A DNA stretch of 64,000 nt from a bacterium (GTDB lineage: Bacteria > UBP6 > UBA1177), in assembly GCA_017961325.1 (NCBI GenBank), contig JAGCXM010000015.1:73408-137407 (forward strand), written 5' to 3'. Within the stretch, counting starts at the first letter, position 1. Each line of letters opens with the position of its first letter. The notes under the pieces were generated by a model, which saw only the letters and a program-made list of their open reading frames with translations, made no database searches and was not told the DNA's origin. Both the position numbers and the translations under genes were made by a program. Of this stretch, positions 4,401-19,112 are shown one piece after another.

Positions 4401-6890
4401 AATTTAGAAGATCATTGGGGAGAAGACGGTTATTGCACGACAACAGAAAAAACGGAAAATCCGCTTTATAAAAACACAGATTTTTCATGTCATTTCGGTT
4501 TCAGTCACGGAATGGATGATTACAGCGATCTGGCTGTTAAAAGTTGGAAAAGGAGAATCAGTGCATGGAGCGGTTCTTATGACAATTTAGAGCGGTATTT
4601 TGAAATTCCAGGAAATGATCCTGCTCGGAATTTCGTAACAATCAATACAGGTTCTCCATTTCCGACAAAGGTCAACTGGTTCTGGAAAAGAGACTGGTAC
4701 AATCAAAACGAATGTTTCAGACCTGGTCTGCAGTTTTATGATTCCGACTTGTGCAAAAGTTTGAGAACGGCCGGAGAATACAACAAGGAATTCACGATGT
4801 ATTATGCACTCTCGACAAATGTGGCGAATGTTTCAATTGACAGCAACGGACAGCCCGTAGGTTCAAACAGCACATACTCATACTTTGACACAGATCAAGA
4901 TATAGATAGAGAAGTTATTGATCCATCGTATTTCCATACAACAGAAAAAGCAGCAAGATCCTTCCGTTACGGATACGGCGGCAGCAATACCGGAACAATG
5001 GAATTGAATTTTTATAAGAAAGATTGGACTCCTGATACTCCGCCGCAAATTGAACCGATAGAAAAGGAATACTGCATTTCCTGCTATTGGAATGTTCCGC
5101 CGCACTTTATTTTTGATGAATACGGAATGCCGCTCCCTGATGCAGAAAGGTACCATTTAGGACGCTGGTCTTTAATGAAAACCGCTGAAAAAAGTTATGA
5201 TTTTTCATCGCAGCAGCTTTATTTCCCGAAAACGATGAATATTCTTGCCGAAGTTGACAATCAGGCAATGTTCGCCGTAACAACAAACAACGCTGAGAAT
5301 AAAAAAACAGCGGAATACGAACTCCGTTTTAATACAAAGGCCAGCGGAGCTGAATGGAGCAAAATAGGTGTAATCAGCAATTGGGATAACTCGATCCGTT
5401 CTCTTAAAGCTGCAACTGAAAAGAACAGGAGCATCTATTTTATCGCTGTTTCAAGTGATATGCTTAAACTCATTGTAATTATTCCGCCTGAACTTTTGTA
5501 TTCCGGCAATGTCTGCGAACAACCTTATCCAATATACATTTTGCGGCAGTTAGAAGTGCCCCGGCTCAATAGAGACGGTATTCAGACTATCAAAATGCTG
5601 AATTTCGGAGATTCTATTTATGTCGTAGGTTCAAGCCGGGCAAATGAAACAGTCAAAACTTACAAAATCACGGAAGAAAACGAACTTGTGGAAGTAGAAG
5701 GATTGAATCCGCCAATAAGAAGCATTATAAACACTGCAAAATACGGGAAATATATATTCCTGATCGGTGGAGAGAATTATCAATCAGTGCAAATGAATGA
5801 TATTTGGAGATTCGACACGGAAACAGAGACTTGGGAACAGATTCCGCTTACGCTTCAAGGCGATTTCAGAAAGGCAATTATCCAAATCGTTGACGGAAAA
5901 TTTGTTGCTGCAAATCCGATAATTGACGGAAACACAACTCATCCGGCTTTTGAACTTGATCCGACAATTTCTGACATAAGCGATCTTGCCGACAGTCTGA
6001 ATTATATTGAAATTCCGGTAACTGAAATTCAAAAAATTTCAAACGAAGCAAACTTCTGCCTCAACGAAACTGACAATTCAATTTTCCCGGGCATCACGAA
6101 TGTTTACGGCGAATGCGTGAAAGTTGAGAACTACGACTTCGACGAAGTTACTTTCCCGGATTACAAGCTGAGTGTCGCAGGTTACAGAAACAGCCTATAT
6201 CTCGGCGGTCTCACGGGAATCCGCAGAGTTGAAATCGGAGAGAACGGCGAAATCACAAAGAAAGAGATGATTTACAGCGGAGAATCGAACAATCTGGCAG
6301 TTTACGGCTATACGCTTTATGCTGCAAACTACAGTGAAATCGACATTTTCAAAATTGCCGAAGACGGCTCGATTGAAAGGAAATCATCAGTAAAAACAAA
6401 TGACTGCCGGAATATCAGAATTGAAGGCGGCAAACTTTTCGCAGCCGAAAACAAACGTGTCAGAATATTTGATTTGAACGATCCTCTTTCACCGGAACTG
6501 CTGAAAACCATTTCACTCAGCAACACTGTTGAAGACCTCGAAATCACAAGTAACAAACTATTTGTTTACGAAAATCTGAACGGACTTCTGACAAGAAAGG
6601 GAAAAGTCACGGTTTTTGACGTTTCAGACACCGCAAATCCCGATAAAATCAATGAATTCAGTCAGTATTGCAACGATCCTGAGATGCAGAAATCCCGAGA
6701 CAGCGTATATCTGGGTTGCAAGAACGGTGTCTTCAAGATCGGAGAAAACGGTTTGAAATCGGTAAGCGGTTCGAAGAACTATCTGCGTGAAGGTTACGCA
6801 TTTGACGGAATCCTCTATCAGGTTTTCAGCGGAACTCTGCATGAATCCAGGGTAGAACCTGAAGAAACTGAAGAAGACGGGTGGTTCTAA
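1461..6890 (+). CDS. Large secreted C25-like (gingipain-type) cysteine peptidase with TSP3 repeats and C-terminal propeller-like region
   Basis: 1809 residues starting with a signal peptide that ends near FANLFA. The N-terminal part resembles the C25 propeptide/beta domain (phrase ASPGNPALPIYTVEFILP). The middle has YLLLIGNP and IVLWSSHGN, giving a candidate catalytic His664; Cys693 in DSCEVG is the best candidate nucleophile. Around residues 810-850 and 894-915 are thrombospondin type-3 calcium-binding repeats (DNDGVID..DNCP, DLDGIGDECD). The last roughly 600 residues hold repeated strand blocks resembling kelch/LVIVD-type propellers. RBS GGAG lies just upstream of the ATG. The family assignment rests on motif order; the Cys context differs from classical gingipains, so activity is unproven. 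Probably exported and calcium stabilised. Confidence 0.7.
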   Translation: MKRIMFFILFLGFFANLFAVEFTFNLSEKNVSVQNDNGLAVFDWSNAFYLASPGNPALPIYTVEFILPDDADINSLSVEINPLTEVLSESFDVAPTPPIEMGDDFEKYWPNQENIDENGRNRLIYGGNGINVFNGFLHQNDNWIKKIIHGKWKSVKYVKVYVRAYDWNPATKELKKLTGGTLTVSVNSSKNTIALSHFSPTAAMTLGNLMQNMVNQDQIRIQNINPLGNSSLYSYTQGLKEFSTFAASKKKRDSLYIITTNHIKNDSKMLNRFIDSKINRDFDVYIVTEDKTDIYNKGKTTISEGWQDLNIQQRADQIRNYLTHDDRYEGIDYLLLIGNPHPGSCQGAPAFNNLNNMNRQSDCIYDGTDEGDIPMKWINIHASSTWSGFCRNNNGNPCARINRFLAEDLRRAMPSDRYFSVLSGNWNPNNDDWIGDGEDGDADDNAEELHNLEINNDVILGRIPVYNNIAELDRYLQKVIRYENTLKTFIPPTINNVQNPNADTIETLRHKVFAMADYKDNHDGWDETPNWLFAKKLNKFLSGNQFFTYRFMLRNDDLSGWTYPVGSDFCNVADKDGFKDNPDPPTPNLPPNLCEVNKHYSRYYNANLNNDPNDPDDSDNIIDANSVIINTLRRNNNGDLIWSGDQAADEWRDGKYGIVLWSSHGNRRGAIIDNGDIGILEDYYSVHTIQDSCEVGWPEDSDNFAVSLLRNGAITTVAANRNTYGELTNFVAQTGRFEHNDSTFEDWDAQAIVFKYAESIINHRDAGTAFSEALNSFEFSKYKRHAILFTFYGDPTIGPETWQDNGNDRDNDGVIDEFDNCPLYPNPDQSDGDFDGIGNDCDNCPDDYNPFVGEGPAYQELFAARRQGASYKAEFSPFFGYFSSDRKSYIWQPDHDLDGIGDECDFDDPNNNNDGFFYSQITDVKGINSDFEDIWRMGIKINDRAEITLKMPENSGSGSQKCLYGCPVAVHFCAIDYNQKNLEDHWGEDGYCTTTEKTENPLYKNTDFSCHFGFSHGMDDYSDLAVKSWKRRISAWSGSYDNLERYFEIPGNDPARNFVTINTGSPFPTKVNWFWKRDWYNQNECFRPGLQFYDSDLCKSLRTAGEYNKEFTMYYALSTNVANVSIDSNGQPVGSNSTYSYFDTDQDIDREVIDPSYFHTTEKAARSFRYGYGGSNTGTMELNFYKKDWTPDTPPQIEPIEKEYCISCYWNVPPHFIFDEYGMPLPDAERYHLGRWSLMKTAEKSYDFSSQQLYFPKTMNILAEVDNQAMFAVTTNNAENKKTAEYELRFNTKASGAEWSKIGVISNWDNSIRSLKAATEKNRSIYFIAVSSDMLKLIVIIPPELLYSGNVCEQPYPIYILRQLEVPRLNRDGIQTIKMLNFGDSIYVVGSSRANETVKTYKITEENELVEVEGLNPPIRSIINTAKYGKYIFLIGGENYQSVQMNDIWRFDTETETWEQIPLTLQGDFRKAIIQIVDGKFVAANPIIDGNTTHPAFELDPTISDISDLADSLNYIEIPVTEIQKISNEANFCLNETDNSIFPGITNVYGECVKVENYDFDEVTFPDYKLSVAGYRNSLYLGGLTGIRRVEIGENGEITKKEMIYSGESNNLAVYGYTLYAANYSEIDIFKIAEDGSIERKSSVKTNDCRNIRIEGGKLFAAENKRVRIFDLNDPLSPELLKTISLSNTVEDLEITSNKLFVYENLNGLLTRKGKVTVFDVSDTANPDKINEFSQYCNDPEMQKSRDSVYLGCKNGVFKIGENGLKSVSGSKNYLREGYAFDGILYQVFSGTLHESRVEPEETEEDGWF

Positions 6891-7020: not shown

Positions 7021-7055
7021 AAAATGTTTGTCGCGTGTGATTTACGGAGTTGAAA

Positions 7056-7472
7056 ATGGAAGACAGACGGCAGAATAAAGACAGAAGAGATGATTTTCAG
7101 TTCAAGCTCCCCGACGACGAGCGGAGCAATATCGACAGAAGGCAGCGTGACCGGCGTACGAAAGAGCGCATTCCCGTAAAGATGTGGGTGCGCAACATCG
7201 ACGGCTTTGCCGACTACTTTCAGCAGACAGGCAATCTGAGCGCTGACGGAATGTATATTTTTTCACCAAGCCCCTACTCCGTCGGAACTGTAATCGACAT
7301 CGAATTTCAGGTTCCGGAAACCGACTACATCATCAAATGCGGCGCGGAAATCCTTCACTGCACCGAAGAAAACCAGATTTTCGGAGTGAGCGTGAAATTT
7401 ACGAACGTTTCTGAAGCAGATAAAAAAATCATAACAAAAGCACTGGACACTATTCAAACAGTTTTATCATAG
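7056..7472 (+). CDS. PilZ-domain protein (c-di-GMP receptor candidate)
   Basis: 138 residues. The ATG at 7056 was chosen over an in-frame TTG at 7050 because GGAG at 7046-7049 sits 6 nt from the ATG but touches the TTG. The N-terminal 35 residues are very rich in Arg, Asp and Lys. The two c-di-GMP binding motifs of PilZ are both present: an RxxxR at Arg34-Arg38 and N-x-S-x-x-G at residues 60-65 (NLSADG). It is a stand-alone soluble PilZ domain of usual length. It precedes nadB by 8 bp, so the two are probably cotranscribed, though no functional link is obvious. The output target is unknown. Confidence 0.85.
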   Translation: MEDRRQNKDRRDDFQFKLPDDERSNIDRRQRDRRTKERIPVKMWVRNIDGFADYFQQTGNLSADGMYIFSPSPYSVGTVIDIEFQVPETDYIIKCGAEILHCTEENQIFGVSVKFTNVSEADKKIITKALDTIQTVLS

Positions 7473-7480
7473 GTACGAAA

Positions 7481-9079
7481 ATGGAACGGATTTATGCTGA
7501 TGCACTCATCATAGGAAGCGGACTTTCAGGACTTTCGACCGCATTGAGCTTAGCAGAGAAAGGGTTGAAAATCGTTGTCGTAACAAAAGAGGCTATCGAT
7601 GTCTCGAACAGCGCGAACGCTCAGGGCGGGATCGCGACCGTCACCGATTTCAATGTCGATTCGTTTGAAAAGCACATCAAGGACACGATCACGGCGGGAG
7701 CAGGACTGAACAACGAAAAGGCCGTCCGCTTCTTCGTGGAAAACGGTCCCGATGCAATCAAATATTTTGAAAAATTAGGCTGTCACTTCACCGAAAACGA
7801 AAAGGGCGAACTCGATCTCGGACGTGAAGGCGGACACTCTGAACGCAGGGTCGTTCATGCCGGCGACATTACCGGTTTCGAACTGATAAAAGTCGTCAAA
7901 AAGGCGGTTCTGCTTCACTCGAACATCACCGTTCTGGAAAACCACACCGCAATAGACGTCATAACCGAATCGAAGTTCATGAGCAGCGAAAACAACCGCA
8001 TAATCGGTGCCTACGTTCTCGGCAGAAACGGAGAGATCCTTACTATCACGGCAAAAACGGTGCTTCTGGCGACCGGCGGCTGCGGAAAAGTTTATCTTTA
8101 CACTTCGAATCCTGATGTTACCACCGGTGACGGCGTCGCAATCGGTTTCCGTGCCGGCGTTCCTGTCGTCAACATGGAGATGATTCAGTTTCACCCGACG
8201 ATTCTATACCACGAAAAAATCAAGTCGATGCTGATTTCAGAGGCCCTGCGCGGCGAAGGAGGCGTTCTTATCAACAAAAAGGGTGAAACATTCATGGAAA
8301 AGTATCATCCGCTCAAATCACTCGCGCCGCGTGACATCGTTGCCCGCGCCATCGACCACGAAATGAAGATGAGCGGAGACGACTGCGTTTTCCTCGATAT
8401 GACAAAACTCGACGGACACTTTCTTCAGCAGAGATTCCCGAATATCTTCAGAATCTGCATGGACGCGGGAATCGACATGCGGACAATGCCTATACCCGTC
8501 GTTCCGGCGGCACACTATTCATGCGGCGGTCTGCAGAGCGAACCGACGGGAAAAACCATCATTCCCGGACTTTTCGTAAGCGGCGAAGTCGCTCACACAG
8601 GTCTTCACGGCGCAAACAGACTTGCCTCGAACTCGCTTTTAGAAGCTGCCGTCATGGGGAAATACGTTGCAAAAGAAATTGTCGCATATATTGAAAATTA
8701 TTCAGGAATTTGTCCTGAACCGCCGGAATGGAACTTCGGAGACGCCGAAGATGAAGACGAAAAAATCATAATCAAGCAGAATTGGGATGAAGTGCGCCAC
8801 ATCATGTGGAACTATGTCGGAATCGTCCGCAGCAACAAGCGTCTGGAACGCGCTCTGGCGAGACTCGAACTTATAAAACACGAAATCAACGAATATTACT
8901 GGAATTTCAAGGTTTCCCGTGACCTTCTGGAACTCAGAAACCTGACACTAGTAGCGGAACTTATTATAAAAAGTGCGATGAAAAGGAAGGAAAGCCGCGG
9001 ACTTCACTTCAACATCGACTACCCTAAAATGCTTAAAGAAGCAAAAGACACGATACTTACACAAACTGAAATTTTTTAA
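7481..9079 (+). CDS. nadB: L-aspartate oxidase
   Basis: FAD enzyme that oxidises L-aspartate to iminoaspartate, the first step of de novo NAD synthesis; in anaerobes fumarate can serve as electron acceptor. 532 residues, normal for NadB. The N-terminus has the dinucleotide fold GSGLSG. Family signatures follow in order: NAQGGIA, the active-site segment EGGHSERR, ATGGCGKVY, MIQFHPT, the Arg motif LRGEGG and PAAHYSCGG. The sequence resembles NadB more than SdhA/FrdA because of the soluble context and the NAQGG and HSERRVVHA motifs. The quinolinate synthase partners nadA and nadC are not in this window. Fifteen bp separate it from the next gene. Confidence 0.93.
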   Translation: MERIYADALIIGSGLSGLSTALSLAEKGLKIVVVTKEAIDVSNSANAQGGIATVTDFNVDSFEKHIKDTITAGAGLNNEKAVRFFVENGPDAIKYFEKLGCHFTENEKGELDLGREGGHSERRVVHAGDITGFELIKVVKKAVLLHSNITVLENHTAIDVITESKFMSSENNRIIGAYVLGRNGEILTITAKTVLLATGGCGKVYLYTSNPDVTTGDGVAIGFRAGVPVVNMEMIQFHPTILYHEKIKSMLISEALRGEGGVLINKKGETFMEKYHPLKSLAPRDIVARAIDHEMKMSGDDCVFLDMTKLDGHFLQQRFPNIFRICMDAGIDMRTMPIPVVPAAHYSCGGLQSEPTGKTIIPGLFVSGEVAHTGLHGANRLASNSLLEAAVMGKYVAKEIVAYIENYSGICPEPPEWNFGDAEDEDEKIIIKQNWDEVRHIMWNYVGIVRSNKRLERALARLELIKHEINEYYWNFKVSRDLLELRNLTLVAELIIKSAMKRKESRGLHFNIDYPKMLKEAKDTILTQTEIF

Positions 9080-9094
9080 TTTTCGGAGGACGAC

Positions 9095-10897
9095 ATGAAA
9101 AAACTGCTAATTACCTTTCTCGCCGTTTTGATGGTGCTTTTCAGCACAAGCTGCGGAGGAAATTCATCAGACAAAAAAAATGATGAGCCAGCAGACAACA
9201 AAAACGATTCAGACACAACTGACGAAAAAAACGACTCTGACGAAGAAACCAAAGACGACACCGGTGACACAGAAACGGACGATGACGGAACAACTGCTCC
9301 GGAACCGACTGTTTTAACTGAAGAGGAAAAACTTGAAAGCATTAAAAATCTTGCGGAAGAGTATATCAATTTTGCACACGGAACAGGTGTCGTAGTAGGT
9401 TACGGCATCGATAAGCTCACTTCTTTTGCTCTCGGTGTCAGCAGTATCGGAACAAGTGAACCGCTTAAAACAGACCACCTCTTTGAAATCGGCAGCATAA
9501 CCAAAAGCTTCACTGCCGTAACGATCCTTCTGCTTCAGGAAGAAGGCAAAATAAGTATCGACGACAAAATCAGCAAATGGTTCCCGGACTTTGAAAAAGG
9601 CGACAAAATCACCGTCAAAATGCTGCTCAACCACACCTCGGGCATCAAGGAAATGACCGAAATTCTCGATCCTGACAAAGTTATCGAGAATATTAAAGGC
9701 CGTTTCAATTTCGAACCCGGAACTGCCTGGGCAGACACGAATTCCGATTATATTTTAGCCGGTCTCATAATTGAAAAAGTCACGGGAAAACAGGCACACG
9801 AAGTGATCAGGGAAAAAATTCTCGATCCTTTCAAACTTAAAAACACTTTTATGAAAGGCTATGAAGAGTATCCGAAAAACAGCGAAGCAAAAGGTCACAA
9901 CTTCAATAATGACGGAAAAATCATACCGTACGAACTGGACCGCAAAGCCTGGACCGCCGGCGGAATGGTTTCAAATGCTGCAGACCTTTTCAAATATGCA
10001 GACGATCTTTTCGGAGGAAAAATCCTGAAAGAAGAAAGCCTGGAGCTTATGCTGGCGCCCGTTGACGAAAAAACGCCTTATGGACTCGGCGTTCAGCTTT
10101 CAACCGGAACACACGGTGTTTTCTACACTCTCGCAGGAAATGCTTCCGCAGCAAAGAATATAGCCCAGTCACATTCACTGCTCGCTTACTATCCTTCCGA
10201 CAGGACGAAACATATCATTCTGAACAACTTCCCCGACAACAAGGACATTGTCGTTCTCAACGACGAAATGGAATGGGTTCTCATCAACAACATTTTCGTC
10301 AAGGAAAGAAAGAATTCCCCGGATTGGGACACGTTGATTGACGGCGGTAAAAACACCCAGATTTTTGCCCTTTCGTCATTATACGTTCCCGGAATAGACT
10401 ACGGTATCGGTTATTTCGCATATCCGGAAGACACTTACAGAAACTATTACTGCAAGCAGTACGTCAATGCTCAGATGAAACAGAAAACGGATGAAGACGA
10501 TAAAGACGAAATCGAAAAAATCATAATAATTCATGATTGTCAGGAACCGAAAGAGTATGTTAATATCATGACCGAATACAAAATGCAGCGTACCAACATC
10601 TACATTGATTTCGAGGATTTCAAAAACGCAATCGAATCAAAAAAACCGATATCCAAATTCACCGTCGAAAAAGGAAACTACTCCATTGAAAACCTGACGA
10701 TAAAAAGCGGCTGCTATACATTCGAGGATGACGGCAACGAAGACAACAAAACAATCACAATCTTAAAGGATGAAACTATTCCTGGCGCGCAGCTTTACCG
10801 TCTCTGGGGCAAGGCAAGTTTGACTAAAAGCACAAAAGGCTGCTACTGCTTTGAAAAAAACGAAGCCGGCGAACTCGAACAAGTTGAATGCAAATAA
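9095..10897 (+). CDS. Serine-hydrolase (class C beta-lactamase fold) lipoprotein, copy 1, active site degenerate
   Basis: 600 residues with signal peptide and lipobox (FSTSC), an Asp/Lys/Asn-rich linker to about residue 75, then a beta-lactamase/PBP4*-like domain. The SxxK motif is intact (Ser134, Lys137 in GSITK). The Tyr of the YxN motif is Asp214, and the HGG motif reads LAG at Leu346, where copies 2 and 3 have Tyr and His. The last 150 residues form a separate Cys-containing domain ending in a CYC/Cys-rich segment and shared by all three paralogues. RBS GGAGG precedes the ATG and the gene follows nadB by 15 bp. It may be a non-catalytic member of the trio or have altered specificity. Confidence 0.85.
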   Translation: MKKLLITFLAVLMVLFSTSCGGNSSDKKNDEPADNKNDSDTTDEKNDSDEETKDDTGDTETDDDGTTAPEPTVLTEEEKLESIKNLAEEYINFAHGTGVVVGYGIDKLTSFALGVSSIGTSEPLKTDHLFEIGSITKSFTAVTILLLQEEGKISIDDKISKWFPDFEKGDKITVKMLLNHTSGIKEMTEILDPDKVIENIKGRFNFEPGTAWADTNSDYILAGLIIEKVTGKQAHEVIREKILDPFKLKNTFMKGYEEYPKNSEAKGHNFNNDGKIIPYELDRKAWTAGGMVSNAADLFKYADDLFGGKILKEESLELMLAPVDEKTPYGLGVQLSTGTHGVFYTLAGNASAAKNIAQSHSLLAYYPSDRTKHIILNNFPDNKDIVVLNDEMEWVLINNIFVKERKNSPDWDTLIDGGKNTQIFALSSLYVPGIDYGIGYFAYPEDTYRNYYCKQYVNAQMKQKTDEDDKDEIEKIIIIHDCQEPKEYVNIMTEYKMQRTNIYIDFEDFKNAIESKKPISKFTVEKGNYSIENLTIKSGCYTFEDDGNEDNKTITILKDETIPGAQLYRLWGKASLTKSTKGCYCFEKNEAGELEQVECK

Positions 10898-10968
10898 TAA
10901 AAAAAACCTGCCGGTGCTTTCATTTTTGAAGAAATTCTTGAATTAAATTTGTTTGAAAGGATTCCGAA

Positions 10969-12741
10969 ATGAAGAATTTTTTTATAGCCGTCCTAACTTT
11001 TTCGTTTCTCTTTTTCTGCATATCCTGCGGAAATTCATCAAAAAATGAAGAAAAAAAGCATGATACCGATGACACCGAAACAGACGACGTTGAAGAAGAA
11101 GACAATACGGAAGAACCTGACACTGACGAAAACGCTCAGCAGTTCTCGCCTGAAGACGAAGCGAAATTGGAGAGCATCAAAAATCTTGCTGAAGAGTATG
11201 TCAGATTCTCCCATGGAACAGGCGTTGTCGTAGGTTACGGAAAAGACGAACTGACTTCTATCGCTTACGGCATGCGCAACAGCGGAACTCAGGAACCGCT
11301 TTCGACAGACGACCTTTTCGATATCGGGAGCATCACTAAAAATTTCACCGCCGTTACGATGCTTCTGCTTCAGGAAGAGGGAAAAGTAGACCTCGACCAG
11401 ACGATAGACAAGTGGTTCCCCGACTTTGAAAAAGGTGACATAATCACCGTCAGAATGCTGCTCAACCACACGTCCGGCATTCTGGAATGGAACGAATACG
11501 ACGATCTGGAAGGCACTGTCGAAAAAGTCAACGGAAAATTCAACTTCGAACCCGGAACCGACTGGTCCTACAGCAACACCAACTTTATTCTGGCGGGACT
11601 TATCATAAACAGAATTACGGGAAAAGATGCGGTTGAAGTCATTCGTGAAAAGATCCTCGATCCGCTTGAAATGACACACACTTTCATGAAAAATTACGAA
11701 GAATATCCTCTTGAAGAAAAAGCCCACGGACACACGTTCGACGAATACGGGAACATCGTTCCCTACGAACTCAACGAAAAGTTTTGGACTGCCGGCGGAA
11801 TCATTTCAAACGTTGAGGACATGTTCAAATACGCTCACGCCCTTTTCAACGGAGAACTTATTTCCGAAGAAAGTCTGAATCAGATGCTTGACATGGTCAA
11901 AGTTTCGAACATTCCTGTTTACGGGCTCGGAATAATGTACGGAAGCGGGCATCACTGCAAATTCTACTACCACGGCGGAGACGTTATCGTCACCTCCGCA
12001 TTTGTTGCCTACTACCCGGAAACTGGCGAAATACACGTCCTTTTCAACAACGGCGGCAGCAGCTCCAGCACCCTCGCGATCCTCAATGACGAGATCGAAT
12101 TCGTTCTCATGGACGGAGAAACCGCTGGAAGCACAAGTGATTTTCCGGATTGGGAAGAACTTATCAGCGAAGATGACGACACACAGGTTTTCGCACTTTA
12201 CGCTCCGCTGCCCGATTACCCGGCTGAAGAGCTGAACGATTCTATCGGATATTTCGTCTATCCCGGAGACTACTATCCCGACTTTTATTGCGAGCATTAT
12301 ATGTTTAAATCCCAAGGCTACGTAAAAATCATACAGCAGTGCATGGAACCGTTGAGATATTACACTGACGATATAAAAGTCAGAAGAACCGACATAGACA
12401 TGTATCTCAGCGAGTTCGAGGCGGCTGCGGAATCGGGTGAGGCGACACAGGAGTTCTATGTCACGAAATACGATTATTTCTACGATGCGGCAGGCGACTC
12501 CGTCACAAAAATATGCTATGACCTCGAGGAGAGCGATCCTGACAGATATATGACGATTTCAAGTGCTGTGCACCCGTCGAATCCTGAATTTTACCACATC
12601 TGGGGCAAGTCAAAAATGGCTGAAGCCGCAAGAGCGACAGGCTGCATCTGTCTGGATGAAAGCGGTAAGGAGCGCGAATGTACCGAAGAAGAACTTACGG
12701 ATAATGAAAGCAGTATTCCGAATCTGCCGGCATTATTATAA
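10969..12741 (+). CDS. Serine-hydrolase (class C beta-lactamase fold) lipoprotein, copy 2
   Basis: 590 residues, paralogue of both neighbours. Lipobox Cys in FCISC, acidic linker to about residue 60, then the catalytic domain with all three classical motifs: Ser121-x-x-Lys124, Tyr201-Ser-Asn and His335-Gly-Gly. The HGG motif and lack of a class C Omega-type signature suggest a D-Ala-D-Ala peptidase or esterase-like member rather than a drug-degrading enzyme. The C-terminal 150 residues match the extra domain of copies 1 and 3 (EFYVTKYDY region and a terminal CICL segment). Probably anchored in a membrane facing the periplasm or the surface. RBS AAAGGA is 7 nt from the ATG. Confidence 0.88.
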   Translation: MKNFFIAVLTFSFLFFCISCGNSSKNEEKKHDTDDTETDDVEEEDNTEEPDTDENAQQFSPEDEAKLESIKNLAEEYVRFSHGTGVVVGYGKDELTSIAYGMRNSGTQEPLSTDDLFDIGSITKNFTAVTMLLLQEEGKVDLDQTIDKWFPDFEKGDIITVRMLLNHTSGILEWNEYDDLEGTVEKVNGKFNFEPGTDWSYSNTNFILAGLIINRITGKDAVEVIREKILDPLEMTHTFMKNYEEYPLEEKAHGHTFDEYGNIVPYELNEKFWTAGGIISNVEDMFKYAHALFNGELISEESLNQMLDMVKVSNIPVYGLGIMYGSGHHCKFYYHGGDVIVTSAFVAYYPETGEIHVLFNNGGSSSSTLAILNDEIEFVLMDGETAGSTSDFPDWEELISEDDDTQVFALYAPLPDYPAEELNDSIGYFVYPGDYYPDFYCEHYMFKSQGYVKIIQQCMEPLRYYTDDIKVRRTDIDMYLSEFEAAAESGEATQEFYVTKYDYFYDAAGDSVTKICYDLEESDPDRYMTISSAVHPSNPEFYHIWGKSKMAEAARATGCICLDESGKERECTEEELTDNESSIPNLPALL

Positions 12742-12761
12742 ACAACTTAAAGGAGACTAAC

Positions 12762-14777
12762 ATGAAAAAAATTATTGCTGCAATGATTCTCATTTCGATG
12801 GTTTTCTTCGGAGCAGCATGCGGAAGTTCATCTAAAAACGAAGAAAAACAGCCTGATACTGACGAAACTTCGGAAGATCAGGACTCCGAAAGTGAGGAAG
12901 AGGAAGATAACGAAGATGAAACAGACGATGTCAAGCCGGTTGATGACGGCGATGAGGAGGAACTGAAAGCGGTTACCCCGGAGGAAAAGCTCGAAAGCAT
13001 CAGAAATCTTGCCGAAGAGTATGTCAACTTCGCTCACGGCACAGGCGTTGTCGTAGGTTACGGGACAGAAGAACTTACATCTTTCGCTTACGGCGTACGC
13101 AACAGCGAAACGAAAGAACCTCTGCAGGCGGATGATCTTTTTGAAGTCGGCAGCATCACTAAAAATTTCACTGCCGTAACGATGCTTCTTCTGCAGGAGG
13201 AAGGGAAAATCGACCTTGACCAGACGATAGACACATGGTTTCCAGACTTTGAAAAAGGTGACATCATCACCGTCAGAATGCTCCTCAACCACACTTCGGG
13301 CATCAAGGAAATGACCGAAATTCTTGATCCTGAAGATATTGTCGAAAACGTCAACGGACGCTTCAACTTCGAACCCGGAACTTCATGGACATACATCAAC
13401 GCTAACTATGTTCTTGCCGGTCTCATCATGAGCGAAGTCGCAGGAAAACCGGCGCATGAAGCAATCCGTGAAAAAATAATCGAACCGCTCGGTCTCACAC
13501 ACACTTTCATGAAAGGTTTCGAAGAACATTCCGGAGATGAGGCAAAAGCTCACGGTCACGCCTACGACGCTTACGGAAACATCGTTCCCTATGAATATGA
13601 GCACAAGGCATGGACGGCAGGGTCTCTCGTTTCAAATGTCGAAGACCTTTTCAAATACGGCAAAGCCCTTTTCAACGGCAAAATTCTTTCGGAAGAGAGC
13701 ATGAACCAGATGCTCGACATCGTCGAACTTCTTGAAGAACCCGTCTACGGTCTCGGCACGCAGTATGGCATTGGTTCGCACAGTGAATTTTACGGTCACG
13801 GCGGAGACGTTTTCGCATCGCACTCCATGCTTTACTACTACCCTGAAACCGGCGAAATCCACATAATCCTTAATAATTTCAATGAAAGCAAGGATATGTA
13901 TGTCCTCAACGACGAAATCGAATACGTTCTTATGGATGACAACGGTGCAAAAAAGAAAACCGATTTCCCCGACTGGAACGAATTGATTGACAATGATGAA
14001 CATACGCAGATTTTTTCACTTTATTCAATCATGCTTGATGAATCCAATTATACCGATTACGGGATCGGTTACTTTGCATACCCCGAAGATGAGTATATTA
14101 ACTACTACTGTCAGAACTATATGTTCAAATGGAAAGGCTACGGAAAAACCATCGTAAAAATCGCTTCTGAGTGTATCGAACCAAAAGAATATTACGTTGG
14201 TCCGTTCAAAGTTCAGCGAACAGACATCGATATGTATCTCGAAGACTTCCAGATAGCAATCCGTACCGGTAAGCCGACACACGAATTTTATGTCACTAAA
14301 TACGATTATCTTTACGATCTTGAGAATGAATTCGTTTACAAAATCTGCTACCACCTTGAAGAAAGCGATCCCGAAAAATATATGGTGATTTCAAAAGATA
14401 CCAACCCCTCAAAAACTGATTTTTATCACGTTTGGGGAAAAACAAAAATGGATAAAAGCAAAAAACTTGTCGGCTGCCTCTGCTACAGACAGGACAACAC
14501 AGAACGAGAATGCACCGAAAACGATGAATATCCGCCGAAAGAGGAAACCGAAAACGATGATGAGTCGGACAATGACGAAATCACGGAAAACGATTCAGAT
14601 CTGACCAATCCTGACGAGGAAACCACGGACGAAGATCCGGACACGCCAGAAACTGACAAGGAAACCACTGAAAACGATTCAGATCCGATCAATCCTGATG
14701 ATGAAACCACGGATGAAGATTCGGACACGACGGAACCTGACGAAGAATTTTCCGACGAAGACTGTTGCGCCGGATAA
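12762..14777 (+). CDS. Serine-hydrolase (class C beta-lactamase fold) lipoprotein, copy 3, with repeated acidic tail
   Basis: 671 residues, longest of the tandem trio. Lipobox in FGAAC, a Glu/Asp linker to about residue 70, then Ser131-x-x-Lys134, Tyr211-Ile-Asn (Ser of YSN replaced by Ile) and His346-Gly-Gly. The shared C-terminal domain is followed by an extra roughly 85-residue Thr/Asp/Glu tail made of two 28-residue repeats and ending CCAG. It begins 20 bp after copy 2 with AAGGAG 7 nt before the ATG, so copies 2 and 3 look cotranscribed. DNA-level identity around the SxxK region with copy 2 indicates duplication in this lineage. Substrate unknown. Confidence 0.87.
   Translation: MKKIIAAMILISMVFFGAACGSSSKNEEKQPDTDETSEDQDSESEEEEDNEDETDDVKPVDDGDEEELKAVTPEEKLESIRNLAEEYVNFAHGTGVVVGYGTEELTSFAYGVRNSETKEPLQADDLFEVGSITKNFTAVTMLLLQEEGKIDLDQTIDTWFPDFEKGDIITVRMLLNHTSGIKEMTEILDPEDIVENVNGRFNFEPGTSWTYINANYVLAGLIMSEVAGKPAHEAIREKIIEPLGLTHTFMKGFEEHSGDEAKAHGHAYDAYGNIVPYEYEHKAWTAGSLVSNVEDLFKYGKALFNGKILSEESMNQMLDIVELLEEPVYGLGTQYGIGSHSEFYGHGGDVFASHSMLYYYPETGEIHIILNNFNESKDMYVLNDEIEYVLMDDNGAKKKTDFPDWNELIDNDEHTQIFSLYSIMLDESNYTDYGIGYFAYPEDEYINYYCQNYMFKWKGYGKTIVKIASECIEPKEYYVGPFKVQRTDIDMYLEDFQIAIRTGKPTHEFYVTKYDYLYDLENEFVYKICYHLEESDPEKYMVISKDTNPSKTDFYHVWGKTKMDKSKKLVGCLCYRQDNTERECTENDEYPPKEETENDDESDNDEITENDSDLTNPDEETTDEDPDTPETDKETTENDSDPINPDDETTDEDSDTTEPDEEFSDEDCCAG
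14583..14750 (+). repeat. Two 84-bp in-frame repeats (28-residue acidic units)
   Basis: Units 14583-14666 and 14667-14750 encode TENDSD-x2-NPD-x-ETTDED followed by a Glu/Asp/Thr stretch. They form the C-terminal tail of serine-hydrolase copy 3 and are absent from copies 1 and 2. Likely arose by slippage; could vary between strains. Confidence 0.8.
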
Positions 14778-14873: not shown

Positions 14874-16568
14874 TTATTTTAAAGTTTTTTCGAAACTGTC
14901 TTTCAGCGTGACGATTCTGTTGACGACGATTTTTTCCGGCGTCGAATCCTTGTCGATGCAGAAGTAACCTACTCTCTCAAACTGGAACTGCCTGCCTGTC
15001 TCAAGGTTCCTGAGGTTGGTTTCGGCATAGGCATCGACGATCTGAAGCGAATTCTTGTTCATGTTTTCTATGAAATCGTGGCCTTCCTCGACTTCGAAAG
15101 GATCTTCCATTTCAAAGAGATTTTCATATATTCTTGCTTCGATTTTCAAACAATTACGGGCATTTACCCAGTGAATCGTTCCTTTGACCTTTCTGCCGTC
15201 GCTGGACCAGCCGCCTTTTGTCGCCGGATCATAGGTGCAGTGAAGCTCCTTTATCGAACCGTCTTCGTTTTTGACGACTTCTGTGCAGGTGATGTAGTAA
15301 GCCGAACGGAGTCTGACCTCTTTTCCGGGAGCGAGCCTGTGGAATTTTGCCGGAGGCTCTTCCATGAAGTCCTTGCGCTCGATGTAAAGCTCTTTCGAGA
15401 AGGATACGAGCCTTTTCGCCGAATTTTCGTCTTCTGGGTTGTTTACAGCCTCGAATTCCTCGGTCTGACCTTCCGGATAGTTAGTAATGACGACCTTCAG
15501 CGGATCGAAAACTCCCATGAATCTTTCGGCTTTCTTGTTGAGATCTTCCCTGACGCAGTGTTCGAGAAGAGCGAGCGAAACCGTGCTGTTTCTCTTTGCT
15601 ACGCCGACTCTTTCAGCAAAATCCCTAATAGATTCAGGAGTATATCCGCGGCGTCTGATTCCTGCGATAGTCGGCATTCTCGGATCATCCCAGCCGGAAA
15701 CGTATTTTTCATCGACGAGTTTTTTGAGAAATCTCTTGCTCATTACGGTGTTCGTGAGGTTTAGACGGGCGAATTCGATCTGCTGAGGCTTCTTTTCGAT
15801 ACCTATAGCTTCTAAGAACCACTCGTAAAGCGGCCTGTGTGCTTCAAATTCGAGGGTGCATATCGAGTGAGTGATCCCTTCTATAGCGTCGCTCTGACCG
15901 TGCGTGAAGTCGTAAGTCGGATAGATGCACCATTTGCTGCCGGTTCTGTGATGCTCGACCTTTCTGATGCGGTACATGACCGGATCGCGCAGAAGAACGT
16001 TAGGATGAGCCATGTCGATTTTTGCGCGGAGCATGTATTCGCCCTCGTTGAACTCTCCGTTCTTCATCCTTTCGAAAAGATCAAGGTTCTCTTCTACGGA
16101 ACGGTTTCTCCACGGACTTTCTTTGCCTGCTCCCGTTGCGGTTCCGCGGTCGCGGCGCATCTCTTCAAGAGTCTGCTGGCAGACGAAAGCCTTTCCCTTT
16201 TTTATAAGTTTGACCGCCCATTCGTAGAGCTGATCGAAGTAACTGGAAGCGTAAAGCACTTTATCTGGTTTGAAACCGAGCCATCTGATGTCGTCCTGAA
16301 TCGAATCGACGTATTCGACATCCTCTTTTTCAGGGTTCGTGTCGTCGAAACGGAGGTTGCATTTGCCGCCGTACTGTTTCGCAAGACCGAAATTCAGGCA
16401 TATCGACTTCGCGTGTCCGATATGCAGGTATCCGTTCGGTTCAGGCGGGAAACGGGTCTGGATCGCGGTGTGTTTGCCGCTCTCAAGGTCGGCATCGATG
16501 ATCGCACGGATGAAGTTTACAGAAGTTTTTTCTTCCTGATTCTGGATTTCATTGATTTTTTCACTCAT
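14874..16568 (-). CDS. glnS: Glutaminyl-tRNA synthetase
   Basis: Class I aminoacyl-tRNA synthetase charging tRNA-Gln. 564 residues, close to the E. coli enzyme. The nucleotide-binding motif HIGH is at residues 49-52 within [17 protein letters not shown] and the KMSKS-equivalent is VMSKR. The anticodon-binding beta barrels fill the C-terminal 220 residues. GlnRS rather than GltX is supported by the [14 protein letters not shown] signature and IRWLGF. Presence of GlnS suggests direct Gln charging. RBS GAGGT lies 5 nt from the ATG. It is monocistronic, convergent with the serine-hydrolase block and divergent from the coiled-coil gene. Confidence 0.96.
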
Positions 16569-16683: not shown

Positions 16684-16712
16684 TTGAAAAAAAAACAAAA
16701 ATCAGTTAAATG
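16684..16712 (+). promoter_or_regulatory. Weak promoter candidate for the coiled-coil/TPR gene
   Basis: TTGAAA at 16684 and TAAATG at 16707 with a 17-bp spacer lie 40 bp upstream of the chosen TTG start at 16752. Matches are modest and the region is A-rich, so this is tentative. Confidence 0.28.
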
Positions 16713-16751
16713 TCGGCAGTTTTTTTTCAGAGCGATTATGTGGAGGTCAAA

Positions 16752-18068
16752 TTGAGAAAGAAATTTTTTATTTTTGCTTTGTTGGCCGCATTCATTTTCC
16801 CTGCCTATGCGGAAACGGTATTCTTTATGCAGCCGGTAACAAAAAGCATCGAAAAATCCGACGCGAAAAAAATCATAAAAAATCTGGAAGCGACGGTAAG
16901 TGCAAAACTCGACGCTGTAAGTTATAAAGATGTTCCCAAAAAGACTCTCAAAAAATTCGGCTCCTGCGGTATGAAGGCGGAGTGCTGGTCGGAAAACGCG
17001 GCAGAAGAAAATTTCAAGTATGTTCTTCTTTCGCTCATCAAAATGAATGAAGATGAAGAAATATCCATCCGTCTCGTTCTCATCAGCATTGAAGATGAAG
17101 AGGTAATCGACGACGAAACCAAAACTTACGACGACACCGACAGCGTTACCGAAAAGGCTCTTTTCTCGCAGATAAAAAAGCTTTCAGGCTACAACGACAT
17201 CAAAGGAAGCAAAAAATCCAAAAACGACAAGGAAATCGACAAGCGCACGAAAAAAATGGAGGAGGACCGCAAGAAAAGAGAGCGTGAACTTGAAAGACAG
17301 CGTGAAGAAGAGGCGCGTCTTGAAAAAGAACGCAAGAAAAGAGAGCGCATGGAAGAAGAGCGTCAGAGACGCGAAGAAGAGGCTGAAATAGCACTTCTCG
17401 AAAAAGAACGCGAAAGAAGGGAAAGCGAAAGAAAGGCTGAAAAGGCAAGCAAGAAGAAATCCCTCAAAAGCAATGCCGGCAAACTTAAAAAAGGCCGCGA
17501 ACTTGTTCTTGAAATGTGTGCCGAAGGTAAATACAACGATGCCGTAAAGGCAATCGTAAAAATCAGCGAAGTAAAGTGCGAATGCGAAGAAGATGCAAAG
17601 GTTCTGGCTCTCAAAACGCAGCTCCTCAACTTCAACAAAGTCCGTGAACAGATCATCAGGGGCGTCGAAGCGAAAAATTCATCGCTCATTCTCGACAACA
17701 TCGAAGCTGCGAAAGCTCTTGACGGATCGATAGTCGAAGGCGGAACCGAATTTTCGCAGAAAGTCGACAAGTACGCTGCAGTCGGATGGCTCGCACGCGG
17801 CAGAGAAATGGAAAAAGCCGACAAATACATCGAAGCGAACGAAGCTTTTGAAAAGTGCATCGAAATCGACTCCGAAAAAGCCGAATGCAACGAATGGCTT
17901 GAATCGAAAGACAAACTCGTAAAGAAAATTTACGACAAGGCGAATGTTTTCAAATACAGCAACCCGTCGAAGGCGAAAGAGCTTCTCCGCGCTATTCTCA
18001 AACTTGTCACCGCTGAAAACGACTACTACAAAAAAGCCGAAGCTGATTTGCAGCAGCTTGAATACTAA
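16752..18068 (+). CDS. Exported protein with charged coiled coil and TPR-like C-terminus
   Basis: The start is placed at TTG 16752: GGAGGT at 16742-16747 is 4 nt upstream and translation then begins with a complete signal peptide (MRKKFFIFALLAAFIFPAYA). Upstream codons in the open frame have no RBS. The mature protein, about 418 residues, has a roughly 125-residue N-terminal domain with FMQP and a Cys pair, then a long Arg/Glu/Lys coiled coil around residues 165-250, then helices with TPR-like spacing (ALEKCIEIDSEKAECNEW) to the end. Similar layouts occur in periplasmic scaffold proteins of motility or envelope complexes, but no family can be named. The next lipoprotein gene follows 9 bp later. 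Confidence 0.8.
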   Translation: MRKKFFIFALLAAFIFPAYAETVFFMQPVTKSIEKSDAKKIIKNLEATVSAKLDAVSYKDVPKKTLKKFGSCGMKAECWSENAAEENFKYVLLSLIKMNEDEEISIRLVLISIEDEEVIDDETKTYDDTDSVTEKALFSQIKKLSGYNDIKGSKKSKNDKEIDKRTKKMEEDRKKRERELERQREEEARLEKERKKRERMEEERQRREEEAEIALLEKERERRESERKAEKASKKKSLKSNAGKLKKGRELVLEMCAEGKYNDAVKAIVKISEVKCECEEDAKVLALKTQLLNFNKVREQIIRGVEAKNSSLILDNIEAAKALDGSIVEGGTEFSQKVDKYAAVGWLARGREMEKADKYIEANEAFEKCIEIDSEKAECNEWLESKDKLVKKIYDKANVFKYSNPSKAKELLRAILKLVTAENDYYKKAEADLQQLEY

Positions 18069-18077
18069 TCGTTTCTG

Positions 18078-19112
18078 ATGAACCCGAAAATCAGATTTCT
18101 TTCCGTTATATTTTTGCTGTCAGCATTCTGTTCCTGCGACACAGTCACCGGGAACAAAGATCCTTTTCTGATATGCAAGGCTTCTGAATACGACTGCGAC
18201 TATCAGCATCAGATTCCCGGAATAATCACGGTTACGAAAGGAAGCAGGAGGAAACACTACATTCTGACCGGAAACGGGATGGAGAAAATAAATATAAAAG
18301 AAGGCGAACCTCTTGCATTCGACCGGCAAAACAAAGTGGTGCTCGTCAAGGAATTTACCGATTCTTCGATAGATATTTTCACCGTCAGCACCGACAGCGG
18401 GGAGAAAATGTCCTCAAAAATTTCGTTAAAACCTAAAAGCATCAAAAACGAAAACGGCAAATCTCTGCTCTCCATCCCGACGCTTTTAGGCAGCTGTCTT
18501 CAAAACGACGGCACGATAATCCTTCTTTTGAATTTTGAATTTGCAGATTTGGGAATCAAATCGGAAAGCCGCGATTTTCTGTATGTTTATGAAAAAGGTG
18601 ACCGGAAAAAGCTGAAAAAATATCCTTTTTCGCAGGAAAACCGGCAGCAGACCGCCGGTCCGGACGATTTTTCTTCGGAAGATCTGCACAACATTCAGTG
18701 CACAGGCAACGGCATTTACGTTTTTTCAGAAAAAAATTACGACGACAGCATGTATTACAGCAAATACTATCCTCAGCCGAACTGGTTTCTGAACAAAATA
18801 ATTCTCAATCCCGAAAAAACAGCGGCAAACATTGAAAACCTGGCACTAATAGCCTACGACGACATCCGCTTCAATCATTATTCCGAGAAAGAAAACGCCG
18901 TTTATACAACAATTCACCCACCTGAAAGCAAAACGGAAAAGCTGCGGATTCTCAGACTGGACGAGGGATACGAAATTCCGGATGAACCTATTGAAAAAAC
19001 GGACGGCGAATTTCTGTTTTCAGAAACTACGGACGGAAAAATGCTCGTTTTTTTCGTAAAAAACAGGACAAATACCGGCGAAGAAGAGAGACTGGAGCCT
19101 ATAAGGCCTTGA
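18078..19112 (+). CDS. Predicted lipoprotein of unknown function
   Basis: 344 residues with an N-terminal hydrophobic segment ending SAFCSC, so Cys20 is the likely lipidated residue. The rest is strand-rich with repeated Lys/Asn turns; a Cys pair (CKASEYDCDY) follows the anchor. No recognisable domain. It lies 9 bp after the coiled-coil gene and lacks a clear RBS of its own, so translational coupling is likely. It ends 3 bp from a convergent glycosyltransferase gene. Confidence 0.72.
   Translation: MNPKIRFLSVIFLLSAFCSCDTVTGNKDPFLICKASEYDCDYQHQIPGIITVTKGSRRKHYILTGNGMEKINIKEGEPLAFDRQNKVVLVKEFTDSSIDIFTVSTDSGEKMSSKISLKPKSIKNENGKSLLSIPTLLGSCLQNDGTIILLLNFEFADLGIKSESRDFLYVYEKGDRKKLKKYPFSQENRQQTAGPDDFSSEDLHNIQCTGNGIYVFSEKNYDDSMYYSKYYPQPNWFLNKIILNPEKTAANIENLALIAYDDIRFNHYSEKENAVYTTIHPPESKTEKLRILRLDEGYEIPDEPIEKTDGEFLFSETTDGKMLVFFVKNRTNTGEEERLEPIRP

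What the first reader, a model, noticed from the sequence alone, without database searches (positions are those of the whole stretch)
9095..14777. Three tandem serine-hydrolase lipoproteins with graded loss of the catalytic triad
Copy 2 has SxxK, YSN and HGG intact. Copy 3 has YIN. Copy 1 keeps SxxK but has Asp214 for Tyr and Leu-Ala-Gly for His-Gly-Gly. All share an extra C-terminal Cys-containing domain that I cannot name. The pattern suggests duplication followed by pseudo-enzyme formation, for example a decoy, chaperone or binding role for copy 1.
Basis: partly seen in the sequence, partly recalled or inferred. Interest (0 to 1): 0.55.

Follow-up and report, generated by a model that had tools for sequence, protein, structure and literature searches.

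The report
Tandem enzyme-like lipoproteins, one remodelled
A rumen-type bacterium carries three neighbouring copies of an enzyme-like surface protein gene; two look like working enzymes, and the third has a rebuilt active site that selection has preserved, so it probably binds or senses something rather than cutting it.

Summary
The three genes are real: intact tandem ORFs right after nadB, each a lipoprotein with an acidic linker, an S12/PF00144 domain and a six-cysteine C-terminal domain. "Graded loss" is wrong: copy 3's YIN is an ordinary YxN, present in 16 of 16 copy-3 sequences, and copy 2 is intact as well. Only copy 1 is altered: Tyr→Asp214, His→Leu346 and six extra residues after motif 3, with Ser134, Lys137 and Asn216 kept. 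The one other copy 1 found (2 of 15 genomes of the genus) carries the same lesion, almost letter for letter, at 65% overall identity, and the copy-1 S12 domain is under purifying selection (omega about 0.07) near that of copy 3. So copy 1 is a maintained, remodelled protein, not a decaying duplicate. Non-hydrolytic binding, sensing or partnering is its likely role; this is inferred. Cautions: active S12 esterases vary in motif 3, and class C Tyr150 mutants are reported to retain activity, so altered catalysis or a covalent acyl trap stays open. The C-terminal domain is a six-Cys module found so far in two families of this phylum, doubled in the sister family. A precedent exists: MipB of Pseudomonas, a beta-lactamase-fold pseudoenzyme lipoprotein acting in sensing.

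The parts
9095..10897 (+). Copy 1: lipoprotein with remodelled S12 domain (Ser134, Lys137, Asn216 kept; Asp214 for Tyr; Leu346 for His; six-residue insertion after motif 3)
   Evidence: ORF; PF00144 148.8 bits; alignment; omega; model
10969..12741 (+). Copy 2: lipoprotein with intact S12 domain (SITK, YSN, HGG)
   Evidence: PF00144 172.4 bits; model; copy 2 present in 13 of 15 genomes of the genus
12762..14777 (+). Copy 3: lipoprotein with intact S12 domain (SITK, YIN, HGG) and an extra acidic C-terminal tail
   Evidence: PF00144 159.9 bits; copy 3 present in 15 of 15 genomes of the genus
9494..9505 (+). Copy 1 motif 1, residues 134-137 (SITK)
   Evidence: coordinates computed from the ORF start
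9734..9742 (+). Copy 1 motif 2 equivalent, residues 214-216 (DTN in place of YxN)
   Evidence: coordinates computed from the ORF start
10130..10177 (+). Copy 1 motif 3 equivalent and insertion, residues 346-361 (LAGNASAAKNIAQSHS)
   Evidence: pLDDT below 50 at 348-358; coordinates computed from the ORF start
10313..10894 (+). Six-cysteine C-terminal domain, copy 1
12139..12684 (+). Six-cysteine C-terminal domain, copy 2
13962..14516 (+). Six-cysteine C-terminal domain, copy 3
7481..9079 (+). nadB-like gene (FAD_binding_2, Succ_DH_flav_C; the name nadB is my reading), conserved upstream neighbour of the cluster
   Evidence: Pfam; synteny

Best explanation
A lineage-specific cluster of S12 lipoproteins. 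Copies 2 and 3 are ordinary, intact Ser-Lys-Tyr hydrolases of the D-peptidase / D-amino-acid-amidase / esterase type, tethered to the envelope by a lipid anchor and an acidic linker. Copy 1 is an accessory paralogue whose active site has been rebuilt and then preserved: the Ser-Lys dyad and Asn stay, the catalytic Tyr is Asp, motif 3 has lost its His, and a new loop follows it. It most likely no longer turns over substrate at a useful rate and instead binds the same kind of D-amino-acid or peptide ligand, or partners or modulates copy 3, the one paralogue that lies beside it in both genomes. Shown: gene structure, motif states, shared lesion, purifying selection (rough), predicted S12 fold. 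Inferred: lack of turnover, binding or partner role, envelope location, substrate type of copies 2 and 3.
For: Copy 1 in G015 (L037, another species) has the same WADTN and TLAGNASAAKNIA-x-SHS while 386 of 598 aligned residues agree overall. Codon model: omega 0.073 for the copy-1 S12 domain (likelihood ratio against omega 1: 202.9), near 0.060 for copy 3 of the same two genomes. Of 156 columns invariant in 29 copy-2 and copy-3 rows, 119 are unchanged in both copy-1 rows, 13 carry the same change (Tyr214Asp, His346Leu and Asn218Asp among them), 8 carry different changes and 16 change in one only. Tyr at motif 2 in 78 of 83 distinct S12 sequences of the phylum, Asp only in the 2 copy-1 sequences. 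The model of copy 1 matches D-amino acid amidase 2dns_D at Z 36.6, rmsd 2.2, 315 aligned. ClbP Tyr186 is reported indispensable (PMC9889268, passage). A precedent for a beta-lactamase-fold pseudoenzyme lipoprotein with a sensing role is MipB (PMC10936184, passages).
Against: Ser134, Lys137, Asn216, the NHTSG stretch and the last Gly of motif 3 are all kept, which a purely structural protein would not need. A review says class C Tyr150 mutants retain activity (PMC6723624, passage). Motif 3 varies in active esterases. Only two copy-1 sequences were found. dS is saturated (2.2 for the S12 domain), so omega is rough. Copy 1's branches are long, so a shift to a new substrate is also possible.
Confidence: 0.6

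Rival explanations
1. Copy 1 is an active hydrolase or acyltransferase with altered chemistry: a Ser-Lys dyad (perhaps helped by Asp214) acting on a different ester or amide, with the new loop forming part of the substrate site.
For: Ser134, Lys137, Asn216 and the motif-3 Gly are identical in both copy-1 sequences; active S12 esterases are reported as SxxK/Yxx/xxG; Tyr150 mutants of class C enzymes are reported to retain activity.
Against: Asp at the Tyr position occurs in none of the other 81 distinct S12 sequences of the phylum; the same esterase comparison keeps the Tyr; ClbP needs its Tyr.
Confidence: 0.25
2. Copy 1 is a covalent acyl trap or sensor: Ser-Lys still acylates, but without Tyr the acyl-enzyme is not released, so it holds D-peptides or beta-lactams. 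This overlaps with the binder reading of the best explanation.
For: Retained Ser-Lys dyad together with loss of the Tyr that one class C model uses for deacylation, while Lys is favoured as the acylation base (PMC6723624, passages); lesion conserved.
Against: No direct evidence; the deacylation role of Tyr is disputed in the same review; loss of the motif-3 His may also weaken ligand binding.
Confidence: 0.15
3. Copy 1 is a decaying duplicate on its way to a pseudogene.
For: Longer end branches than usual (0.44 and 0.28 against a median of 0.11 for the whole tree); found in only 2 of 15 genomes of the genus.
Against: Intact ORF, AGGA stretch before the start, omega about 0.07 in the S12 domain over a saturated dS, and the same lesion and insertion in another species.
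Confidence: 0.03

Closest known systems
S12 D-stereospecific hydrolases (Bacillus alkaline D-peptidase 4y7p, D-amino acid amidase 2dns, Streptomyces R61 DD-peptidase 3pte)
   Same: PF00144 domain, SxxK/YxN/HxG in copies 2 and 3, same predicted fold
   Different: Acidic-linker lipoproteins with a six-Cys C-terminal domain; copy 1 lacks the Tyr and the His of motifs 2 and 3
MipB of Pseudomonas aeruginosa (PMC10936184, passages)
   Same: Lipoprotein with a beta-lactamase fold, degenerate catalytic motifs and additional C-terminal beta domains
   Different: MipB lacks SxxK, has two eight-stranded barrels and lies near the ParRS two-component system, in some strains with mipA; copy 1 keeps SxxK and has one six-Cys domain, beside nadB and intact paralogues. 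Its sequence was not compared here
Pab87 / CubicO protease (2qmi; PMC2651629, passages)
   Same: S12 domain followed by a separate C-terminal domain
   Different: Pab87's C-terminal lipocalin domain builds an octamer; whether the six-Cys domain shares that fold is not settled here
DltE / FmtA D-Ala esterases (PMC10241514, passages)
   Same: S12-fold envelope hydrolases; DltE keeps only the Tyr of motif 2 and the Gly of motif 3 and is an active esterase
   Different: DltE keeps Tyr213; copy 1 has Asp there
Class C beta-lactamases (NF033085)
   Same: Same fold and superfamily
   Different: 65.5 to 73.6 bits against an equivalog cut-off of 415

Membership tests
PF00144 (S12-type domain family, by homology) | Profile score over the curated cut-off of 27 bits | tested here: met
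   148.8, 172.4 and 159.9 bits for copies 1, 2 and 3
PF00144 (S12-type domain family, by homology) | Serine beta-lactamase / PBP-like fold | tested here: met
   Predicted models: copy 1 Z 36.6 to 2dns_D, copy 2 Z 28.6 to 2drw_C; copy 3 was not modelled
Catalytic S12 serine hydrolase | SxxK | tested here: met
   All three copies
Catalytic S12 serine hydrolase | Catalytic Tyr of motif 2, copies 2 and 3 | tested here: met
   14 of 14 copy-2 and 16 of 16 copy-3 rows
Catalytic S12 serine hydrolase | Catalytic Tyr of motif 2, copy 1 | tested here: not met
   Asp in 2 of 2 copy-1 rows
Catalytic S12 serine hydrolase | Motif 3 (K/H)-x-G, copy 1 | tested here: not met
   LAG in 2 of 2; the Gly is kept. 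This feature varies in known active members
Catalytic S12 serine hydrolase | Measured turnover | not testable with these tools
   No assay possible
Class C beta-lactamase (NF033085) | Equivalog score over 415 bits | tested here: not met
   65.5, 73.6 and 72.8 bits
MipB-type pseudoenzyme sensor | Loss of SxxK | tested here: not met
   SITK kept in copy 1
MipB-type pseudoenzyme sensor | mipA-like outer-membrane partner gene adjacent | tested here: not met
   The genes flanking the cluster are nadB-like and a class I (E and Q) tRNA synthetase. Genes further off (132-1439, 16710-18068, 18078-19112) have no Pfam match and distant partners were not tested
CubicO / Pab87 | C-terminal lipocalin-type barrel | tested here: inconclusive
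   Fewer than a fifth of the rows reach past residue 400 of the model; the domain was not folded alone
Lipoprotein | Hydrophobic leader ending in a lipobox-like stretch with Cys at residue 20 | tested here: met
   Leader and Cys20-Gly21 in all three copies; C20 and G21 are at 90% or more of 32 rows. Judged by eye; no signal-peptide predictor was run

The most novel reading that the evidence does not exclude
Copy 1 is a rewired, still reactive site: a Ser-Lys-Asp arrangement with a new motif-3 loop that acylates but does not release its ligand, making a covalent sensor or trap for D-amino-acid peptides or beta-lactams, kept beside intact hydrolases of the same gene cluster in a rumen lineage.
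Probability: 0.15. Interest if true: 0.6.

Novelty: new variant of a known kind. Interest (0 to 1): 0.36.

Why it matters
In the few, narrow literature searches that I made for pseudoenzymes of this fold, MipB was the one close case. Here a remodelled member sits in tandem with two intact paralogues, and a second species carries the same lesion, so one purified set of three proteins would test what the Tyr and motif 3 really do and whether a dead or trapped S12 protein can serve as a receptor. A second S12 group of the same phylum, in 3 of its 28 genomes, has lost Ser, Lys, Tyr and the motif-3 His altogether, which suggests that such conversions recur.

Tried and rejected
Graded loss: rejected. 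Copy 3 has Ser, Lys, Tyr, Asn and His in 16 of 16 rows; copy 2 has Tyr, Asn and His in 14 of 14 and Ser and Lys in 13 of 13 readable rows (L035 is cut short).

Assembly artefact or frame damage: rejected, since an independent assembly (L037 = G015) has the same copy 1.

A nearby Tyr or His standing in for the lost ones: by sequence, no newly placed substitute was seen. Tyr219 of copy 1 aligns with Phe (14 of 14) in copy 2 and Tyr (8) or Phe (8) in copy 3; His340 is His in all 32 rows; His360 is His in 16 of 16 copy-3 rows. Low pLDDT around motif 2 is no sign of a dead site, because copy 2 has it too (188-205 below 50). Of the three motif regions only that of motif 3 (348-358) is below 50 in copy 1 and not in copy 2; residues 284-289 of copy 1 are low as well.

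Parent of copy 1: the best tree puts it beside copy 3 (95/92), but AU tests did not reject copy 1 with copy 2 (p 0.18), copy 1 with the L037 copy 3 (p 0.18) or copy 1 with the G000 and L044 copies 3 (p 0.069). So the age and parent of the duplication are open.

Identity in the active-site segments of the two copy-1 proteins: 85 of 100 against 226 of 305 in the core (hypergeometric p 0.0015). I chose the segments after seeing the alignment, so this is weak.

C-terminal domain: of 40 members scanned, at most 2 matched any one Pfam family, best E 0.013; the best PDB sequence match has E 0.092. Rfam at gathering thresholds found nothing in the window. UBP6 is not in the NCBI taxonomy by that name, and one paper holding UBP6, rumen and candidate phylum was listed and not read. 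Literature listings 58, 60 and 74 gave background; of PMC2266909 two passages were seen and not used. Of the 16 loci I left out L046 (Streptomyces, 29% over residues 142-333 only).
Full report
What is there. Three intact + strand ORFs follow one another at 9095-10897, 10969-12741 and 12762-14777, directly after a nadB-like gene (7481-9079; FAD_binding_2 and Succ_DH_flav_C) and before a convergent class I (E and Q) tRNA synthetase gene at 14874-16568. Each start has an AGGA stretch before it. Each protein has a leader with Cys20-Gly21, a low-complexity acidic linker, a PF00144 domain (148.8, 172.4 and 159.9 bits; cut-off 27) and a C-terminal domain of about 190 residues. The window lies in a 2.35-Mb genome of 48 contigs. 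Three of the relatives' records are titled 'bacterium UBP6_...', and others name rumen, reticulum, abomasum or duodenum of yak, water buffalo or goat, or reindeer or red deer, so I take the lineage as UBP6 of the ruminant gut; that is inference from titles. Two of the records are titled 'uncultured Spirochaetales'.

Motif states. In the alignment of 2 copy-1, 14 copy-2 and 16 copy-3 sequences, copy 2 has YSN in 13 of 14 and YCN in 1, with HGG in 14 of 14; Ser and Lys are present in the 13 rows that reach motif 1. Copy 3 has SITK and YIN in 16 of 16, HGG in 14 and HAG in 2. YIN is therefore an ordinary YxN, and there is no graded series. Copy 1 alone differs: Asp214 at the Tyr, Leu346 at the motif-3 His, and six extra residues after motif 3. 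The second copy 1 (L037, genome G015) has the same letters at these places, with one difference (Gln or Met) just after the insertion.

How unusual. I collected 118 S12 rows, 83 of them distinct, from the 28 genomes held for the phylum and the named loci. At motif 2, 78 have Tyr, 2 have Asp (copy 1) and 3 have Arg; the three with Arg have also lost Ser, Lys and the motif-3 His. The first residue of motif 3 reads His in 73, Lys in 3, Ala in 4, Leu in 2 and is unread in 1. These states rest on one multiple alignment.

Selection. Between the two copy-1 genes 386 of 598 residues agree, 246 of 333 in the S12 domain, and a pairwise codon model gives omega 0.073 there (dS 2.2, so rough), 0.10 in the C-terminal domain and 0.095 over the whole gene. 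The same pair of genomes gives 0.060, 0.041 and 0.086 for copy 3; two copy-2 comparisons gave 0.13 and 0.15 for the whole gene. Of 156 columns invariant in 29 copy-2 and copy-3 rows, both copy-1 rows keep 119 and share the same change in 13, including Tyr214Asp, Asn218Asp and His346Leu; 8 carry different changes and 16 change in one only. This is a protein under constraint with a fixed new active-site pattern, not a decaying gene.

Distribution. In the 15 genomes of the genus, copy 3 is in 15, copy 2 in 13 (one a fragment at a contig start) and copy 1 in 2. Of the 15 loci L031-L045, nadB is followed directly by copy 2 in 11, by copy 1 (then copy 3, no copy 2) in L037 and by copy 3 in L045; L035 and L044 begin in or at copy 2, so their upstream side is unread. 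L032 and L044 come from one genome record. Thus copy 1 and copy 2 are each missing in some species, while copy 3 was found in every genome searched of the genus. G015 is rated 84% complete with 6% contamination, but its locus is read through. The best tree sets copy 1 beside copy 3, but other placements are not rejected.

Structure. Copy 1 was predicted with mean pLDDT 75.9 and copy 2 with 71.8. The S12 domain of copy 1 matches D-amino acid amidase (2dns_D, Z 36.6, rmsd 2.2, 315 aligned), alkaline D-peptidase (4y7p, Z 33.7, rmsd 2.6, 310 aligned) and R61 (3pte, Z 32.6, rmsd 2.7, 309 aligned); copy 2 matches the same group (2drw_C, Z 28.6, rmsd 2.9, 299 aligned). So the fold of copy 1 is predicted intact. 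Its motif-3 loop (348-358) is of low confidence; motif 2 is low in both copies.

The C-terminal domain. In the alignment of 40 domains, four cysteines are invariant in 40 of 40, and two more are present in 36 of 40, missing only in the second repeat of the sister family. In that sister family of the order (f3), genomes G006-G009 each have one protein of 802-822 residues (open frame) with one S12 domain and two such domains in a row; in G005 the frame ends at a contig edge. The domain profile matches in 20 of 28 genomes of the phylum at E up to 0.001, 15 of the genus and 5 of f3, and in none of the 8 genomes of g2-g4, f2 and f4. Weak matches (E 1e-4 to 1e-3) point to small stand-alone lipoprotein-like proteins of 233-236 aa (L107-L109) and one of 504 aa with two stretches (L110); these may be distant relatives. 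No Pfam or PDB sequence match of note was found.

How it works. Copies 2 and 3 have the catalytic residues that an S12 hydrolase needs, and the nearest solved relatives by sequence or fold include D-stereospecific peptidases and amidases, so I expect envelope hydrolases acting on D-amino-acid peptides or esters (inference). Copy 1 should bind similar ligands in a changed pocket. The Tyr is reported indispensable in ClbP, but a review says that class C Tyr150 mutants retain activity and favours Lys as the acylation base, and motif 3 is variable in active esterases. Hence 'hydrolytically dead binder or partner' at 0.6, 'active with altered chemistry' at 0.25 and 'covalent trap' at 0.15; the last overlaps with the first.

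Comparison. MipB of Pseudomonas aeruginosa is the nearest functional precedent: a lipoprotein with a beta-lactamase fold, no SxxK, degenerate motifs 2 and 3 and two C-terminal barrels, which co-purifies with MipA in a polymyxin-sensing module (PMC10936184, passages only). Copy 1 may work in a comparable way; it keeps SxxK, has no MipA-like gene directly beside it and has a different C-terminal module, so it is not filed as a MipB. It is a homologue in PF00144 but is not filed as a catalytic S12 enzyme, because the Tyr test fails.

Noticed in passing
L116 (850-2745, -), L118 (1156-3093, +), L144 (853-2529, -): A second S12 pseudoenzyme group in three genomes of the sister family f3: PF00144 at 186.5, 185.6 and 167.1 bits, yet SxxK reads GGLTM or GGLTE, the motif-2 Tyr aligns with Arg and the motif-3 His with Ala. 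About 215 further residues follow the S12 domain, an outline like that reported for MipB.
   Followed up: partly
L107-L110, L111, L114: Weak matches to the six-Cys domain in stand-alone or tandem lipoprotein-like proteins, and in two proteins that continue into an Lcl_C (PF07603) domain.
   Followed up: partly
G000 genome, 42 of the 46 places: Apart from the three copies and one separate S12 gene, the matches of the full alignment are N-terminal and mostly cover leader plus acidic linker only: a common style of lipoprotein with an Asp/Glu-rich tether in this genome. Low complexity may inflate these scores.
   Followed up: no
window 1461-6890: 1809-aa protein with a Kelch-type repeat and a thrombospondin type 3 repeat below its cut-off, in the lower-GC part of the window.
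   Followed up: no
window 7050-7472: PilZ-domain protein just upstream of nadB; a relative lies before nadB in 11 of the 15 loci L031-L045 (open frames of 150 codons or more). L031 and L043 show none; L035 and L044 do not reach that far.
   Followed up: no
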